From: Pegea sp. RAD2-039
Lineage: Eukaryota; Chordata; Thaliacea; Salpida; Salpidae
Assembly (NCBI GenBank): GCA_034620365.1
Contig: JAQGEQ010000084.1
Location: 2,480,001 to 2,544,000 of the forward strand
Direction: 5' to 3'
Length of the DNA: 64,000 nucleotides
A program made the position numbers and the translations under genes. A model generated the notes under the pieces. It saw nothing but the letters and a program-made list of their open reading frames with translations. It had not been told where the DNA came from and searched no databases. Below are positions 8,043 to 26,164 of this stretch, piece by piece. Each line of letters opens with the position of its first letter. Position 1 is the stretch's first letter.

Positions 8043-9454
8043 CTACAACAATTTTGTTTTCGATGAATTCAGAGCCCCCATTGCAACTGAATTATCTTTA
8101 ATTGGTATCAGAGCAGCTCCAATAACTCCAGGTTTGTGTTGTCTTACTAGATTGAAGGTTCCACATGCATTTAAAGTAGATTGAACTTCTAAACCAATTC
8201 CAATCTTTTTGAAATGAGAAGAAAGCTCACTTGGAAGTTTTTCATACTTTTCGCCAGTACCAATTACTATTAAATCTAAAGATTTGTAGAAAAGTTTAGT
8301 TTTTAGCAGATGTTGAACAACATTAAACTCTAATGTAGCATCACCTGCTAATTGAAGGTTTATTGAGTAACATATTTAATATTTAAAGTAAATTTTTACA
8401 GTCTTAAAAACAAAACTTACCTATTTTAGGGTAAACCATTTGAAATATTGATAAACTTTCTGCTGTAATTTCTTTCACGTCATTAACCTACAAAGTTAAA
8501 ACATTCAAAAGTTAAAAAAAAACTTTGAAATTATTCAAAGCTCACATTCCAACGAAAAGCAGTTTTATCTATGATGGCTAATGAACCTTTGATATGAAAC
8601 TTAGCAAATCTGAAGCCTCCATTACTACAACCCATCAGCATTAAAGGATGTCTATTTGGTGACCTTGATTCAATATCAACAGATGTAGAGTCTCCATCAT
8701 CAATATCATTAAAATCTAATCTCGAATTTTGATTGGTGACTCTATAAAAGTGAAGTTTGAATAGAAAGTGTTTTTATCAACTTTTTTGATTTTGTTAACT
8801 AGCATTCCAGCTTTAGTAGAGCTTTAGTCTCAAATAATAAGACATACAGATTAGTGTAAAGATTTACCCCAATAAAAATACTTGAATCAGATGTTGATCT
8901 TTTGAAATTTTTATAAAATATTGTTTGTAATCAAAACTGTACATTTATACTATTTGACAGCCAACAAAATAAAAAGTTTACAAGTTATACTTAGATAAAT
9001 TTAATAAAAAAGTATTTTAAAAAAACTTTAATTTCATTTAACAATTTTCAATTCAGCCAAATTTCGGTTCATATCAACATTATAAATGATTAAAGATGCC
9101 TTTTAATATCTAACTATAATAATTCTTAAGCCAATTTTTAACAGTTCTTATAACTACAACCATATGAATATTAAATGTGAACTCATGTCAAATTTAATTA
9201 ACATTTCTTTCAAGAATAATTAAAATACAAAATAATTCAATAGCTGGGCATAAAATATATTGAAGAAATTTAATAATACAATAGATAGCAAGTTGGTTGA
9301 ATTTATTTCAAAATAAAAATAATATTTCAAGGTTAATTATTATAAATAAAGTGCAAACTTACGAGTGATGAAGACTTTTTTCTAACGCTAATTGAACTGA
9401 ACAAAATTTGTGAAGACTTTTAAGCCTAGTAAAAGTATTAAATATTGAAGCCAT
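8043..9454 (-). CDS. NDUFAF3: NADH dehydrogenase [ubiquinone] 1 alpha subcomplex assembly factor 3
   Basis: This is a mitochondrial complex I assembly factor of the Mth938/DUF498 fold. Four exons on the minus strand: 9454-9363 (ATG), 8741-8546, 8487-8421 and 8344-8043 (TAG). They total 657 nt, or 218 residues. The N-terminus has Arg/Lys/Ser and no acidic residue for over 20 positions, which fits a mitochondrial presequence. Family landmarks are NGGFRFAKFHIKGS, the core Trp of FRWNV, LIVIGTGEKYE (the Mth938 nucleotide-fold-like strand), EVQSTLNACGTFNLV and GVIGAALIP, closely matching animal NDUFAF3. Residues about 35-52 form an acidic insert (DFNDIDDGDSTSVD) that I do not recall in vertebrate proteins. 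The gene is tail-to-tail with GBE1, 217 bp apart, so terminators and poly(A) signals must sit within that gap. Confidence 0.93.
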
Positions 9455-11481: not shown

Positions 11482-14400
11482 CTAATTGCTTTCTTGTGAT
11501 TGGCTAGTCGCATTTTCGCAATTCGAGAACACGGGTGTTGTTTGTATAATTTCTTGCAAATGCTTCGAAATATTTTCACAAGCCTTATAAACTTTATCCA
11601 AATATTCTGGTATCCCTGAAAAACAAATTAAAAAAGTGAAATTATTAGAAGATAAAAATAGTAGACCAACCAGTAGAAGTTATCCAAGATGTTAGACGAT
11701 TTGGTAAAGCAGTTTTTGGCTCATCACTATAAGTAAGGAGAAAGTCCATTCCCGGGTTATCAGCTTTGGTGTGAGGTTTGATAAAAATATGAGAGATATA
11801 AGTAGGAACACGAACATATTTTGTTTCTTCTTTACAACTAGGATGTTCAACCGATCTATTGAAATATCAAAACTATTTGATTAAAGTAGACTTGATGAGA
11901 CTTAAATTCAGATTAAACAAATGTAAAAAGCTTTTTGATTGGATAAAAGCTCAAAAAATTCTCAATTGAAGTTTATGTTTCGACCAATAAGAAAGCTTCT
12001 TTATCTACAATCGTGTTTATTAGCAGAGACAAATTTGTTCACCTTGACATGACTGCAAGTATTTTTCCTCCATCTAAAACCTAGAAGTATTAAAAAATAA
12101 GATCATAAAGGTGAAATAATTAAATAAATAAATATATATTTTAAGAATTATAAGTTAATTGAATTGAACAAACAGATATAGTTACTCACATCTTAATATA
12201 TCAATTTAATATTCATAAATTTGAAAAAAACTTCAGTAAGATATTCATATTATAAACAAAAATGTTTAAAATAGATGTTCCCAACATCCAGACCACTCAT
12301 AAATAAACAAGATCATGTGATAAGTTACTAGATGTTTCAAAATATGATAAAATGATGCAGCAAGACAAAATCAATTTTGGAGTAGACACCATTTTGAAAG
12401 AAGTTTTGGAATGAAACAAAAAAGAACCAAAATTTCAGCTGAATATATCATAATGTTGATTAGTAACTATCAGCAGAATAACTAAATATATTATGACGTC
12501 ATTTTAGTGGATCAATAAATGCTGGAAGATGAGCTTGTGAAGAATTTTTGATGAAGTTGTTGAATGTACAAAACAGTTAATTCAAGAAAAGGTGAAATTT
12601 AAAGAAGAGTTAAGATATATGATGTAAAGTTACTTCATATGAAGTCAAATCGATTTGGGTGAGATAGAATTTTAAAAGTAAGTAAATTAATCTCAACTTT
12701 TGAATAATTTGCTTCTAACTTTTCTAACTAAATATTACTTAATAATCAAATAAATTTGAGTATTTGTAAACTTTTGGATGAAAATGTTGCTAATAGTTTA
12801 AATATATCATTAAAACTATAATATCATGATTTCATTCGAATGTCAAATGTTTTAAAACCCAAGTCATCAAAAAAATTTGCACTTTTGAGTATTTTAGATG
12901 AACTTAAAAGATGAACAAAACAATAATTGTTTTGCTGAAGTATTTTCTTGACAAATTTAGCTTATATAAAGTTTATAGATACAATTTCATGTAAATTGTT
13001 GTTTAAATCGTTAAAATAAATCAAGAAATAAAAGAAAAGTAATTTAGGTAATTAGATAGACAAATATAACATCAGCTAGAAGCTTTTGTGTACAGAAAAT
13101 AGTTATTCTGAACAAAAATTAACGCAAGCTAGTTGTGATAACAACAAAACATTATTCAGCCAGAAAAAATTACTGCAATCACAAGAAAAGGTTTAGATAT
13201 CTGAAAATCGAAGACTTTTATAATATCCAAATTATTTACAATTTAAAAAACACAAAACTTTTCTAACAATAAGTTTTAGCGCGAAATAAAACCTAAAGAA
13301 ACAAATAGTTTTGATCAACTAAATCTTTTAAAAGACTTCTTTCAAAGATTATCTCTTCACCGCTTAATTTAGAAGATAATCGCTTAGTAGACTTTTAATA
13401 AACAAATTTCTTCTATTAAAATCTTTTAAAGTCAAATTTAAACATTATTAAACAATATTTTATCCAAATCTATATTCTTGTACTCAGTTTAAAAAGATGA
13501 AGAAAGAAAATAACTCTGAGATTGAAAGTCTGGAAATGGAATCAAAAAGCGATATTGCTTCAGAATCGACAAATATTGAAGATGATTCAATTGCTTTAAA
13601 ACCAAGTGCACATGCCGGTAGGCCAAGCTACAAAAAACAAAAGAAGAAAATCCCTGCAGAGGATAAAGATTATTTGAGTAGTTCCAAATTTAGTTTACTT
13701 TCTGATAAGACATCATATGCTCACCAGCAAGCAAAAAAAATGAAAGTCACTTTCAGTAAAAATGAAAAGAAAAAAAAGTCACCTTTATGTGAAGAGGAAG
13801 AATGGGAAAAGTATATGAAGAAAAATGGACTAAAACCCAGTCTAGGTGGTGCCCCCTCGCCCAGCAGCCGCGTCCCTTCTTTTATTGCTATGGTAAAAAC
13901 CGCTATTCGTGACTTGAAGCCATATAAGATGACACACAAGGAAGGAATAGCAAAGTAAGAAAATAACTTTTATTACATTAAAGAAAAATATTCACAAAAA
14001 TTTACTTTTAAAATTAAAAATAATTAAAGTTCTTTTATTTATAATAAAAACTTTGTTATAGATACATCGAAATAAGATACAGAGTAAAAAATTGCAAACT
14101 TTTAAAGTATGTCCTAAAATGGATGGTTGAAATGGATATTCTAAAAAAGAAGGGTTGCAATTTCAATTTTGTAAAAAAAAGGTGGGTTTACAATTAGTAA
14201 AAAGTAATTTTCTTCAAAGTGAAGACTCATCAGCAATTTTTCTACTGAAAATTGATATAAACTTTTAATGATAGAATGTTTATGGATAGTCAAAGTGTTG
14301 CTAGTTGTGATGAAACGACAGTTTCTAAACCAAAAAGAAAATGTCCTCCAAAACGAAAAACGTGTCCACCAAAAAGAAAAACATGCCGACCTAAACCAAA

Positions 14401-16480
14401 ATGTCCCCCAAAAAGAAAAACATGCCGACCAAAACCAAAATGTCCGCCAAAACGAAAAAAGTGTCGACCTGAACCAAAGTGTCCACCAAAACCAAAGTTA
14501 ATATTAGATATTTTTCGAAATTTATAATCATAACAAAACTTTTCGTCAGCAGAAAACTTAAGTGCTATTACAGGGCAAAAAGCAAGAAAACTAAACCAAA
14601 CAAATGTAAAAGTTCGAAACGACACGAAGGATGTGAACGGGTTCGTTGCAATTGCTACGAAAAGTTGAACTCAAAGAAGAACAGAATTAAACTGAAATCT
14701 AGATATGTGAAAAAGTGCGGGAAGATATACTTAGAGAGTGTTTACATCTAGACAAGATTAATGATAATCGAAGATAAAGTCAGAAGGAGAAGTGAATCTT
14801 ACCTTTGACCTCCTGACATAAACATATTCTCTTGGTTTGAGAGGATACTGTTAATAAATATCAAAATTACTAGTTAGTGATTTACAATTCGCATATTGTT
14901 TGTGAGAAATAAAAAATAATTATCTAAATTAATTATTATAATTATCATTATTTATAATCAATCTAATATTAAAGTTTTAAGACTTCTGAATTATTTGGGT
15001 GAACAAAAGTGATGCTAAACAATTAGTAGCAAAAAAACTTACAGGATAGGCAGTTATCCACCTAAGCACTTCTTCTTTTGTTTCTTTGTTTTGATCAACA
15101 ACATCAATTTCAATAACTAGTTTGTCCCATACTTTACGATAATTTAAATCAGTTTGAACAGTAAAAAAATCTTTTGCACAAATTTCCACATTTCGACCCA
15201 ACACTAAAATAAAACAAATTAATGGAAATAGAAGTATAAAAAGTTGACAAAAATGACAGTTTGTATTAAGTAATTACAAAAACTACTTTTAGAAGATAAA
15301 AAGAAAAACCTTTATAAATATAGCTATCAGTTTTTTTCTCGTAGACTTTCCAGATCTTAATAGTAGGAGTGTTTAAGATATTCTCCCACTCTTTAGGAAT
15401 TCTACTATCTAGAAAATATATTTTAAATTGGATGAATTACTCATTAGTAGCAAAATAATCTTTAAAACAATTAGAGATAGATACAATAACAAAAGTATAG
15501 AAATAAATATTCATAAAATCAATATTATCCTGATAAATTCTGAAACTAAAAAAGAAAATATTATTAATAAAAATATTGTTAAAACAAATTATTTTTACTA
15601 TTGCTTAGTAATCATAAGAAACAAACCTTTTAATGATAGTAATGATGATTTATCTTCTTTTATTGGACTTAATAAATCAATCTCATGGGCATAACTAAAA
15701 TATATAGAATAATATCATTATAATATAAATTATTATAATAAACATAATTTTACACAAAAAAATTTATAAAAATTATTATGAATGCTACTCAGTAAAAATT
15801 TGTTTTATTTATTTATTGCAATAAATGTGAAGGAGGGTACCTAAAGAGAGCACCTCTCGCTAACACACATTCTCACAGATTAGATTTTATATTACAAAAT
15901 AAACATTAAAATGACTTTATTAATATGAATTTAGAGACATAGCATACTAAAGAAAAAATTATTACATCAAAAATTTAATTTACCATGAAGCATTTTAAGA
16001 AGTTAAAAAATAATAAACTTTTGCTTTATTGGTTTTTAGTTAACAAATTTTATATAAAAGTTTAATAATAAAACAACTAAAAAGTAGAAAAGTATACCTT
16101 TTAATTTCATCATCACTAATTCCATCTTTTTCCCATGAAAATGTGCCTATTGTACTAGCAAATAAATAAACTATATTTGATTTTGGAATCTTCATTGACT
16201 TTAAAAGAGAAATATAGAGCCTTTGCCATGTATAAGATTTATAAAAATTGAAAGGATTCCTTGAACCAGTATTTGATCTTTTGGTTTGATATTGTCTATA
16301 TGATTTGAAAGATCGAAAATAATTTACAGATTTGTCACAAAAAGAAGAATATGAAATATAAAATGAACCAGCAGGTTTCTGAGTACACTTGGTAAAATTA
16401 CGAAACCAGTTTTTATAATCCATTCTTAGTTTAGTTGAACATTGTTTTGATAAGTTTGATATAAATGTCTGATAATTCAT
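11482..16480 (-). CDS. STARD7: StAR-related lipid transfer protein 7 (START domain)
   Basis: This is a phosphatidylcholine-transfer protein that supplies mitochondria. Eight exons on the minus strand: 16480-16098, 15694-15627, 15408-15310, 15203-15043, 14847-14803 (45 nt), 12080-12043 (38 nt), 11855-11671 and 11615-11482 (TAG). They total 1,113 nt and 370 residues, equal to the length I recall for human STARD7. The N-terminal exon is rich in Ser, Tyr, Lys and Arg, as expected of a mitochondrial import sequence, and ends FSWEKDGISDDEIKR. START-domain landmarks are KIWKVYEKKTDSYIYKV, DLNYRKVWDKLVIEIDVV, EVLRWITAYPYPLKPREYVY, SVEHPSC, DFLLTYSDEPKTALPNRLTS and SWITSTGIPEYLDKV. The start was taken at MNYQTF; an in-frame Met 25 codons upstream is possible. 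Intron 14802-12081 holds a complete gene on the opposite strand. Confidence 0.93.
12081..13496. other. Left part of the large STARD7 intron
   Basis: This is intronic AT-rich DNA that also serves as the presumptive 5' flank of the nested histone-like gene. It has one perfect TGACGTCA octamer near 12494. Just before the nested ATG a CTTGTACTCAG acceptor-like site sits 9 nt upstream, so a 5' untranslated exon or a trans-spliced leader could join there. Confidence 0.4.
13497..14751 (+). CDS. Linker-histone/protamine-like protein with Cys-rich repeat tail (nested gene)
   Basis: This is probably a DNA-compacting chromatin protein, perhaps of sperm. Four exons: 13497-13954, 14062-14181, 14275-14496 and 14553-14751 (TAG). 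They total 999 nt and 332 residues, in phase throughout. Residues 1-127 are acidic then lysine-rich. Residues about 128-193 form an H15 winged-helix domain: SFIAMVKTAIRDLKPYK, EGIAKYIEIRYRV, LKYVLKWMVEMDILKKKGCN. Residues about 210-266 are a tandem repeat of the type KRKCPP / KRKTCRPKPKCPP, with eight Cys spaced 6,6,5,6,5,6,5 residues apart. Residues 267-332 are Lys/Arg-rich with six more Cys. The fold assignment of the middle is strong; the role is inferred from composition (H1-type PL proteins and Cys-cross-linked protamines). It lies wholly inside a STARD7 intron, antisense to it. The short repeat could vary in copy number between individuals. Confidence 0.82.
15810..15880 (-). repeat. Solo 3' end of LINE family A
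   Basis: This is a 70-bp relic of the LINE 3' terminus in a STARD7 intron, reading on the minus strand TGTGAGAATGTGTGTTAGCG, then GAGAGGTGCTCTCTTTAGGT and ACCCTCCTTCACATTTATTG. The same block terminates the longer LINE copies at 18395-18460 and 43592-43657. It is a severely 5'-truncated insertion. Confidence 0.8.
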
Positions 16481-17304: not shown

Positions 17305-18475
17305 TATTATGACAAATAGTTATCTACTCGTAGTCAAATCACCAGTGGTGTTCCTCAGGGTTACGTTCTGGGTCCCCTTCTCTTTTTAATTTTCATTGAA
17401 GACCTCATTAGAAGACTAGTAGCAGTAGATGATTTCAGTGTGTTTGTGTATGCAGATGACATCAAGCTATTATCTTGCAATCCTTCAAAACTTCAAACTG
17501 CACTACACACTGTAGAAAACTGGCCTATAAGCTGGCAGCTCAGAATCCAGTCCATAAAATCTGAAGTTATAACTTTCTCCCGTAAACCAGCTGCAAATTC
17601 CTTGAACCAATATTCCATCAATGGATCTATTATTAAACGAATATCTTCGGTCCTAGACCTTAGCATTACTCTACCATCTGACTTTAAGTGACACAATTAT
17701 GTTTCCAAAATCAACCAACCTTGTCTACCTCATTATAAAGACCTCTAATACTAAGGATCCATACTTCTTTATCAGTCTCTTCAAATTGTACGTATGTACA
17801 ATTCTTGAATACAAAGTCAGTGCATGGATGCCAAATCAAGTTGGTGATATCAAAAAAATTGAATTTGTTCAGGCAAGATTTATGAGATTGGTATGCAGTA
17901 GACTTTATACTAAATGTAATAATTATGAACATCGTCTCAGCTCCTAAAATTTAAGTACTTTGGAAATTCGACAGATTTAATACAACTCAATTCTTATTTT
18001 ATAAATTATCTATAATTTAATTGACGTTAAATTCGATAGTCCCTCTCTCAAGTTATATCAACTCAGATGACACAAAATACACCTTAGTAAGCCCATATCA
18101 CGTATTACTTCAATCAGAGGGAATTTCTCGTACTGCACAATTAGTACTTGAAACCAGCTGCCATCAGACATTGTCATGTCAGAATCACTCGTGTTGTTCA
18201 AACAGAAGTTATGATATTACCAACATTGCCATTTCTAAATTGTGATTTTCCCTTTTTTTATACTATTTACATTTTATGTAATTGTCACTGTTATACTGTA
18301 TGGGAATTACTAAACTGCCATGTGTTACATCTTTTTATTTCTATATTTCCAGCTTAATTATATATAATTGGTATTATTACATATTATATTAGTTGTTAGA
18401 GTGTGTGTTAGGGAGAAGTGGTATTTTTAGGTACTCTCCTTCGCGTTTATTGTAGTAATTAGATAGATAAAAAAA
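17305..18475 (+). mobile_element. Non-LTR retrotransposon family A, 5'-truncated and decayed
   Basis: This is a fragment of a CR1/Jockey-like LINE reverse transcriptase. SGVPQGYVLGPLLFL (RT motif region B) and VYADDIKLLS (catalytic YADD, about 17450-17480) are readable in one frame to about 17690. After a frame change come the thumb and C-terminal signature IKKIEFVQARFMRLVC (about 17850-17890) and a further broken stretch to about 18245. Several stops and frameshifts make it inactive. The 3' terminus (18395-18460) is the GTGTGTTAG…CTCTCCTTCG block followed by an A-rich tail at 18461-18484. The 5' portion (endonuclease, ORF1) is missing. Confidence 0.85.
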
Positions 18476-23700: not shown

Positions 23701-26164
23701 AGAAGTTTCCGATTAAAAGCATTCGACTTTCTCGAGTGATGCAGAGGTAGATGAAGATCAACATCCACTGATCCTCATCTTTCTATTATTTGTAGAATCC
23801 TTTCTGCCTTGAGCCATTGGTCAAAGATCTTTGCAGAAATCGACTACCTCCCTCTCGTGGTCTTCCCTTTCGTCAAACTCTTCCAGAATAACAGCTTGAT
23901 CTGTTTTGAAACCATTTCTACTTTCATAAGTTGGTCTTTCAGCACCATCTAACCATTCAGCAGCTTACTAACGAGATTTTACAGTGAACTGGTTCCAACA
24001 TTGGTTCGAATTCTTTCCTAACCCACCAGTCAATGTTCTTAGTATGGTTGAGAACTTGCTCGCTCATCACGATAAGGACTTGTTGCGTCATCTCATTCAG
24101 TGTGACGTCACTACACAGGTAGAGACGTGAGGCGATTGTAACCATGGTGACAAGCGGTAGTGACGTGGCAGGTGTACGCGTGGCCGCTGATGCAAACTAT
24201 CTTCTCGGAAGTGTTCTCGCGCAACGAGTGGATGCGATTATTTGATCACGTGTTCACAGCACATCCGGGTTTCTTCTACCACTTGGTAGCAGCATACTCG
24301 ATCTGTTGCAGATCAGCTCTGCTGAGGACCTCGCATCTCGCCGACTTCAAGGTACTGCTTCTATGTGGGCATCTTCCAGCGCTCACTATCCTTCTTTTAG
24401 TACTTCTATCACCATCGCAACGCACTCGATGTAAAAGTGGTGATCAGTGAAGCGTATCGGATGGCTAGTTGCACCCCGAAGCATATCGACCCACTGAAGT
24501 TGATGAGCGAATTCGAAGCGATGTCAAAGGGCGAGACTTATCCTATCTTCAACAAGTTCCCTCATTTCATCGTCGACTATCAGAGCAAAGAGCGTGAAAG
24601 GATAAGGAAAGAGGAGCTGGAGTATCTCCGTGAGAGGTTGTAATGTGATCACTAGAGGTCAGTAGTGAGTCAGATGATCCACAGACGAGTTACGGAGGAG
24701 CTAAAGGAGCGGATGACGTCAAGAAAGGAGGAGGAGCAGGCGTGGTATCAGCGACAGGAGATCTTAGACGAAGCTGAGAACGAAAGAAGAAGAATCTTAC
24801 TGGATGAAGAGAGCAAATTAGCAAATCAACGGAAGAAGTAAAGATGAGAGCAATTGTAGGGATCGGATGTTGATCTTAAGATCTTTTATAGACTAGCTGC
24901 AATGAAACGGGAACTAAAGACTCGAGAATTAGAGTTGTTGGATCGCGCGCGTATTCGATTCGTCAATCATCAGCAGCAGATGAGGAGTGCTGAGATCGGG
25001 CGCATTGAAGACGAGATCAGGCGTAAAGTGATGACGTCATCATCACTTGATAGCCATGACGTCATGTTTGGATGTGATTTCAGGCGTTCCAGCGCGACGA
25101 AGAGCGAGCGTCGGCGGTTGATGACGTCGACATCCGTGGACTTGAGCTGGAAATTCAAAGAGCTTCCCTGGAGCAGCAGGTTTGTTGTTGAATTTGAAAA
25201 AGATCTGTTGCTACTTGATGGAGTTTCAGATGGCAAAAGAGCAAGTAGAGCATGGTATAAGATTGAGGCAAGAGTTGGAGACTCGTCGTCATGCTGAAGA
25301 AAAAGAAAAAGATATGCAAATGAGAGGTGAAGATGACGAGGCGGATCTGGAAGCGATGCAGGTCTGTTTGAATATTTTGTGGGTCTTGAAATTAATCCAA
25401 GTGAATAGAAATATGAGAAAGATCTTGCCACTACTGAACTCAAGTTGAACGCTCTTAATCATCGTAACGACATCGTATCACGTCTCATGGATTATGACGT
25501 AGATCGCGAGAAGAATCTGGCAAAATCGCTGTCGAAGAGTATTAACAATCATCGCAAGCGTCAGGAGGTGGAAGAGAAGTTAGCAGAAGAAACAGAATTG
25601 AAAGTAAATGAGTTGAATGGAGTCGGATGTAATTTAAGAGGTTTTGATTACAGAGGGCTGAGGTGGGTCGTAGTAAAGAAAGGGTCCGATTTCTCGATGA
25701 GGTTCGGGAAGACTGTGATGATAGAAGAAAGACTTTGCTACAAGAAAGGAACTTGGAAGAGTGTCGTCAGCGGATTCGTGAAAGTGAGAACAAGTTGAGA
25801 GATCAATTGGAAACGATCAAGAGCAAAAGCACTCCGTTTGTTGCTAATGGTAACCAATCATTAATATGAGTTTCGTGATGATAAAATATCATCGTTAGAT
25901 CGTTCATCTTCGATCCTAGCAAGAGATGAAGATGTGACAACCGCTGTAAGCAACTTGAACGCGTTGAAAGAAATCGAGAAAGATCAGCATTCTATCAGTG
26001 GTACTTGTAAGTTTAAAGTGATCAACTAATCAACAAGAAATTAAAATGATGTGATAGGGACATATGATAATAGCCGGATGCAAATGAATGATGAAGAACA
26101 GGAAATGTTAAATCGCGCGAAGGATCTGCGGAAGAGGTTGCTCTCTCATCGGAAGCCTTGTTGA
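20747..26164 (+). CDS. TBC1D31: TBC1 domain family member 31 (WD40-TBC-coiled coil)
   Basis: This is a centriolar-satellite/ciliogenesis scaffold protein. Twenty-one exons: 20747-20820, 21712-21855, 21958-22073, 22273-22451, 22589-22737, 22796-22955, 23050-23262, 23321-23461, 23514-23746, 23796-23929, 23985-24118, 24172-24351, 24401-24636, 24685-24837, 24892-25027, 25084-25179, 25230-25361, 25409-25603, 25654-25849, 25899-26006 and 26058-26164. Total 3,216 nt, 1,071 residues (human about 1,066). The start SGKIWHR matches the human N-terminus. WD40 repeats occupy about residues 25-345 (VSWMRGHESDVHSI, TAQLWNLDTFQR). The Rab-GAP-like TBC domain is at about 395-690 (FFIWRNLLKLPENQ, FPFVKLFQNN, NWFQHWFEFFPNPP). 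A long coiled coil (about 700-1010) and the terminal NRAKDLRKRL helix follow. All junctions keep phase. Confidence 0.96.
20982..21058 (+). repeat. Solo 3' end of LINE family A (in TBC1D31 intron 1)
   Basis: The sense copy of the conserved LINE terminus reads GTGAGAATGTGTGTTAGTGA, then GAGGTGCTCTCTTCAGGCAC and CCTCCTTCGCATTTATTG. This is the best-preserved copy. GGTGC and GCACC flank TCTCTTCAG and can pair as a small hairpin. Confidence 0.8.

What the first reader, a model, noticed from the sequence alone, without database searches (positions are those of the whole stretch)
13497..14751. A linker-histone domain fused to a cysteine/proline/basic repeat: a possible hybrid H1-protamine
The sequence directly shows a four-exon, phase-consistent 332-residue protein: acidic/Lys-rich N-terminus, H15-type winged helix, then eight Cys in a regular 6,6,5,6,5,6,5 spacing set in KRKCPP / CRPKPK units, then a basic tail with six more Cys. 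Sperm PL-I proteins (H1-derived) are known to carry winged helices, and eutherian protamines are known to cross-link through Cys. I do not recall the two combined in one repeat-bearing protein. Inference: a sperm chromatin protein that compacts DNA and is locked by disulphides or zinc.
Basis: partly seen in the sequence, partly recalled or inferred. Interest (0 to 1): 0.78.

Follow-up and report, generated by a model that had tools for sequence, protein, structure and literature searches.

The report
Tunicate linker histone with cysteine repeats
A tunicate (sea-squirt group) genome encodes a histone-H1-like protein with a tail of regularly spaced cysteines, probably used to pack and lock DNA in sperm; the general kind is already known, but this family and its repeat look undescribed.

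Summary
A near-full-length relative (P0001, 1313-base contig) reads through all three junctions. The genome is a tunicate's (CesA and GH6 stretches at one locus).

The protein belongs to a family found in Ciona savignyi and Clavelina: conserved winged helix, variable basic linker and, in 5 of 6 rows that extend past the winged helix, a C-terminal CxC beta-hairpin signature. The genome also holds five H1-like genes with very basic tails, three with Cys; these group, weakly, with Styela P1 protamine and not with the focal gene. So Cys-basic tails sit on two H1 branches.

Sperm packing is inferred; no expression data were available. H1-like sperm proteins with Cys are in print (Nasonia PL1, section read; Zhang 1999, citation seen only). 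Verdict: new variant of a known kind.

The parts
13497..13954 (+). Exon 1: N-terminal region (acidic/Lys-rich) and first part of the winged helix, to residue 152 plus two bases
   Evidence: Open frame, donor GTAAGA; colinear with P0001
14062..14181 (+). Exon 2: rest of the winged helix (helix 3 and strands)
   Evidence: Acceptor TTATAG, donor GTGGGT; colinear with P0001
14275..14496 (+). Exon 3: Cys/Pro/basic repeat exon
   Evidence: Acceptor GATAG, donor GTTAAT; colinear with P0001
14553..14751 (+). Exon 4: basic tail with six Cys, C-terminal signature, stop codon
   Evidence: Acceptor CAGCAG chosen by P0001, which has the extra residues
13857..14181 (+). Winged-helix domain, residues 121-193, split by the 107-base intron 1 (13955-14061)
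   Evidence: PF00538 E 6.8e-4, below curated cut-off; predicted fold of P0001 matches H1/H5
14342..14482 (+). Eight-Cys repeat, residues 216-262, CPPKRKT / CRPKPK units (39-base DNA unit)
14647..14748 (+). C-terminal signature, residues 299-332: CxC and predicted beta-hairpin, shared with Ciona, Clavelina and P0003

Best explanation
It is an H1-derived, PL-I-like sperm nuclear basic protein of a tunicate. The winged helix docks on DNA or nucleosomes; the extended Lys/Arg/Pro tail (net +42 after the winged helix) neutralises DNA; the regularly spaced cysteines tie neighbouring molecules together by disulphides late in spermatid maturation; the C-terminal CxC hairpin is a conserved docking or metal-binding piece. 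Shown: gene structure, sequence kinship of the winged helix with H1/H5, charge, Cys pattern, family, tunicate origin. Predicted only: the fold and the hairpin. Inferred: sperm expression, DNA compaction, cross-linking, role of the hairpin.
For: Winged helix of the H1/H5 kind. Of seven H5 DNA-contact residues (numbering recalled) four align with K: K69, R73, K40, K52. Basic tail, net +42. All 18 Cys kept in P0001 although the repeat differs there by substitutions and one extra seven-residue unit. The same tunicate genome has five more H1-like genes with very basic tails, three of them Cys-bearing, whose only named relative found is Styela P1 protamine. In Ciona robusta a highly expressed testis H1-like protein, TD02, is seen in late spermatid and sperm nuclei only (PMC11592721 section 3.2.4, read as a passage). 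Nasonia PL1 combines winged helix and Cys/Arg/Lys tail, and one of its peptides had been purified from sperm proteins (PMC13148410 section 11).
Against: No expression data. TD02 was not linked to this family by sequence. The winged helix is more conserved than expected of a sperm packing protein (46 of 73 identical between focal and Ciona). The relatives P0003, P0005 and P0006 are 568-718 aa long with extended N-terminal regions. pI is 10.0 against 11.7-12.0 for the Arg-rich P1-type proteins. The Cys-Pro repeat is missing in Ciona, Clavelina, P0003 and P0006. The gene is outside the P1 group. Three of seven H5 contact residues are not basic here (R42 to Y, R94 to N, K85 in a gap).
Confidence: 0.58

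Rival explanations
1. A specialised linker-histone variant of germ line, egg, embryo or soma that acts on nucleosomal chromatin, not a sperm packing protein. The Cys repeat is a recent, loosely constrained tail expansion.
For: High conservation of the winged helix and of the C-terminal signature; long N-terminal regions with CxC motifs in relatives; helix-3 basic residues kept; modest pI; the repeat is a DNA tandem repeat that varies in length.
Against: 18 of 18 Cys kept in P0001 (with 89% overall identity this is only weak evidence). Cys-basic tails also occur on the P1-type sisters.
Confidence: 0.28
2. The cysteines bind zinc (or another metal) and make a metal-stapled scaffold; disulphides play no part.
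For: Paired spacing of Cys and CxC motifs, also CxC..C clusters in the N-terminal regions of P0003, P0005, P0006 and P0007.
Against: Gaps of 5-6 with Pro after each Cys fit no zinc motif that I recall; no Pfam zinc family was hit at E<=1 or, for the relatives, at E<=0.1; the repeat is predicted disordered.
Confidence: 0.1
3. A pseudogene or a chance join of unrelated exons.
For: Only the missed Pfam cut-off.
Against: P0001 is colinear over the whole length (104 of 119 N-terminal, 69 of 73 winged-helix, 64 of 75 repeat and 59 of 64 tail positions identical); Ciona, Clavelina and P0003 share both the winged helix and the C-terminal signature.
Confidence: 0.02

Closest known systems
Tunicate H15 proteins without a function name: Ciona savignyi H2YWB6 (P0002) and Clavelina lepadiformis LOC143459347 (P0005)
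   Same: Winged helix (46 and 44 of 73 identical) and C-terminal CxC signature (18 of 34 each); basic linker
   Different: No Cys-Pro repeat: 5 and 4 tail Cys against 15; P0005 has a long extra N-terminal region
Styela montereyensis P1 protamine (Q7YXH7, P0010) and the five P1-like sisters in this genome (L013-L017)
   Same: H1 winged helix and basic tail; a PxPS motif before the winged helix in P1 and L017; Cys-basic words in L015, L016, L017
   Different: Separate branch of the winged-helix tree; P1 tail is Arg-led (48 R, 20 K) with no Cys; no C-terminal CxC signature seen in their sequences
Nasonia PL1 (LOC100116183)
   Same: Winged helix plus unstructured basic tail with several Cys, from a testis-expressed gene (PMC13148410 section 11)
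   Different: Insect, 216 aa; sequence not compared here
Cysteine-containing PL-I proteins (Zhang, Lewis, Ausio 1999)
   Same: By its title, H1-like sperm proteins with Cys
   Different: Paper not seen (reference in PMC11607694); number and place of Cys unknown to me
Chicken histone H5 / canonical H1
   Different: The focal protein lacks the GxGASGSF stretch and K85; the two canonical H1s measured (L001, L024) have no tail Cys
Eutherian protamines
   Same: Basic and Cys-containing; disulphides known there (passages of PMC12216123)
   Different: Protamines are small and Arg-rich without a winged helix (recalled); here Lys-led, with one

Membership tests
Linker histone (H1/H5) superfamily | H15 winged-helix domain | tested here: met
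Linker histone (H1/H5) superfamily | GxGASGSF-type stretch of canonical H1 (motif recalled) | tested here: not met
   Absent in focal and in the 5 relatives aligned; also absent in the P1-type proteins (alignment)
Linker histone (H1/H5) superfamily | Long basic C-terminal tail | tested here: met
   139 residues after the winged helix, 36% K+R, net +42
PL-I type sperm nuclear basic proteins | H1 winged helix joined to a basic, mostly disordered tail | tested here: met
PL-I type sperm nuclear basic proteins | Present in sperm nuclei or expressed in testis | not testable with these tools
   No expression or proteome data; TD02 of Ciona is not shown to be this gene
Tunicate P1 protamine (Styela P1) | Groups with Styela P1 in a winged-helix tree | tested here: inconclusive
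   Focal family separate (100/99), P1 group without it (73/80); 10 of 19 inner forks open
Protamine (P type) | Small, Arg-dominated protein without a globular domain (recalled) | tested here: not met
   332 aa, winged helix, tail 36 K and 14 R
Disulphide-locked sperm proteins | Cys oxidised between molecules in mature sperm | not testable with these tools
   Needs sperm and non-reducing gels or mass spectrometry

The most novel reading that the evidence does not exclude
A tunicate family of linker histones with a conserved C-terminal CxC beta-hairpin, without a function name in the records I retrieved, in which one lineage has grown a 13-residue Cys-Pro-basic repeat, while the same genome grew other Cys-basic words (CAPKRR, CKPKRR) on its P1-type sperm proteins. 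If so, one animal evolved cysteine-locked, H1-derived cross-linkers of sperm chromatin on two separate branches.
Probability: 0.35. Interest if true: 0.62.

Novelty: new variant of a known kind. Interest (0 to 1): 0.45.

Why it matters
Tunicates are one of the groups from which an origin of protamines from H1 has been argued (citations in PMC11607694). A genome with two H1-derived branches that both carry Cys-basic tails, beside Arg-rich sisters without tail Cys, would let one ask whether disulphide locking of sperm chromatin arises again and again from H1 tails, as in eutherian protamines. The conserved winged helix with a fixed C-terminal hairpin is the odder point: it predicts a partner or binding site that bulk packing proteins are not usually thought to need.

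Tried and rejected
A rotifer origin (my first guess from genome size and GC) was dropped after the CesA-GH6 locus and the Ciona, Clavelina and Styela relatives. COX1 as a species marker: no match in the assembly. The species was not determined. Matches of the KPKCAPK repeat on contig C121 are KPKSSPCDLKIKTEPKDD arrays, not relatives. Rfam (gathering thresholds) and tRNA scans of the window were empty. Foldseek gave no match at E<=0.001 for the mostly disordered model; its best was H5, E 0.015. The C-terminal hairpin was not searched alone against solved folds. Tunicate sperm-protein papers by Lewis and others 2004 and Saperas and Ausio 2013 are not held. dN/dS was not computed because I did not have the DNA of P0001.

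Full report
What is there. Exons 13497-13954, 14062-14181, 14275-14496 and 14553-14751, with GT-AG introns of 107, 93 and 56 bases, give a 332-residue protein with 18 cysteines. P0001 is 343 aa on a contig of 1313 bases (sources jgi and lgn) and is read without a break across all three junctions, so it is best taken as a spliced transcript of a close relative; an intronless copy is not excluded. Between the two, 104 of 119 N-terminal, 69 of 73 winged-helix, 64 of 75 repeat and 59 of 64 tail positions are identical, and 18 of 18 cysteines are kept. In its own genome the gene found no second copy: the four matches at E<=0.01 are its own exons (18 candidates scored, 325-aa version).

The repeat. 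Eight cysteines with gaps 6,6,5,6,5,6,5, each followed by PP or RP; none of 200,000 shuffles reached either pattern. In the DNA it is a 39-base unit, 3.3 copies at 87% matches, so the regularity by itself shows duplication, not function. P0001 has one more seven-residue unit, so the repeat still changes in length.

Whose genome. The assembly has 105.7 Mb in 387 contigs. One locus encodes a cellulose synthase stretch (PF03552, E 1.1e-7) and, 1.5 kb further on the same strand, a GH6 stretch (PF01341, E 1.8e-8). A paper's title gives CesA as present in all tunicate genomes but not in other animal genomes (PMC6523144, search listing only). The three relatives with an organism name, of 14 proteins retrieved, are all tunicates: Ciona savignyi, Clavelina lepadiformis and Styela montereyensis. 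The animal is therefore a tunicate.

The family. Two protein searches gave seven relatives in all (4; 7, the same 4 among them; one search scored only the 7988 candidates sharing most words, so more may exist). The winged helix is well conserved: 46 of 73 positions identical to Ciona, 44 to Clavelina, 40 to P0006, 38 to P0003. P0004 and P0007 end at the residue where exon 1 of the focal gene ends, which suggests a shared intron. In 5 of 6 rows that extend past the winged helix the last 34 residues follow C.C........NR.K...RY....GKIY....Y. (12 invariant positions); P0006 does not. The models of P0001 and of Clavelina P0005 both show a beta-hairpin there (built on the same seven sequences, so not independent). 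After the winged helix the relatives have 2-5 Cys, against 15 in the focal protein and 18 in P0001, so the Cys-Pro repeat is most simply a gain in the focal lineage.

The sisters. PF00538 has 29 hits in the genome. I read the seven lowest-scoring ones in six fetched stretches. Five are intact H1-like frames with very basic tails: L013 and L014 without tail Cys, L015, L016 and L017 with 14, 5 and 9. One is a decayed copy next to L015 and one, L018, looks like an ordinary H1. The two canonical H1s that I measured, L001 and L024, have no tail Cys. In a winged-helix tree of 22 rows the focal family is one branch (100/99), the P1-type proteins another (73/80) and H1s a third (84/85); 10 of 19 inner forks are open and L014 is a long branch, so the depth is not resolved. 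On that tree Cys-basic tails occur on two branches. A PxPS motif just before the winged helix is in 8 of 8 family members and in L017, P0009 and Styela P1; L016, L013 and P0008 have only PSA; L015, L014, P0011, P0012 and the H1-like P0013 and P0014 have none. It hints at kinship with P1 but is short.

How it probably works. In Ciona robusta the H1-like testis protein TD02 appears in nuclei of late spermatids and sperm, not earlier (PMC11592721, passage of section 3.2.4). The passages and reference list that I read do not say which gene TD02 is. By analogy the focal protein would bind DNA by its winged helix, neutralise it with its tail and be cross-linked by its cysteines as spermatids mature; each of these steps is inference. 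The conserved winged helix, the long N-terminal regions of relatives and the modest pI speak for a more particular role than bulk packing, and the main rival, a linker-histone variant with a drifting tail, is given 0.28.

Novelty. A winged helix with a basic, Cys-bearing tail is already described: Nasonia PL1 (PMC13148410, section 11 read). [quoted passage not shown] My literature searches (open-licence papers only, listings of at most 25 rows) showed nothing on this tunicate family or on a Cys-Pro repeat in an H1, but the two key tunicate papers are not held. I therefore file it as a new variant of a known kind.

Noticed in passing
L015 3455-4276 (G000:C11, about 95.0-95.8 kb): H1-like protein with a long KxKCAPKRRK repeat (14 tail Cys); about 1 kb upstream a decayed second copy of its winged helix with stops inside (C11:93925-94125).
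   Followed up: partly
L017 1785-2648 minus (G000:C11, about 1.86 Mb): H1-like protein with a very basic Arg/Lys tail (net +115) and nine tail Cys, pI 12: a stronger candidate for a bulk sperm packing protein than the focal gene.
   Followed up: partly
L050 (G000:C121:187500-197400): Neighbouring genes with open frames up to 1020 aa made of KPKSSPCDLKIKTEPKDD repeats, of unknown nature.
   Followed up: no
P0003, P0005, P0006, P0007 N-terminal regions: CxC..C clusters and repeated PxPS or FPSAG words in the long N-terminal regions of relatives, absent from the shortened focal protein; possible metal sites or processing signals.
   Followed up: no
window 17320-17688: Reverse transcriptase stretch (RVT_1, E 9.2e-16), probably a retroelement remnant.
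   Followed up: no
window 24001-26000: GC 0.451 with GC skew 0.213 in a window otherwise at 0.20-0.35; the one frame scanned there, 24860-25294, has no Pfam match at E<=0.01.
   Followed up: no
window 8046-8375 minus: Exon matching DUF498/DUF598 (PF04430, E 1.1e-13); I recall this family as including the mitochondrial assembly factor NDUFAF3.
   Followed up: no
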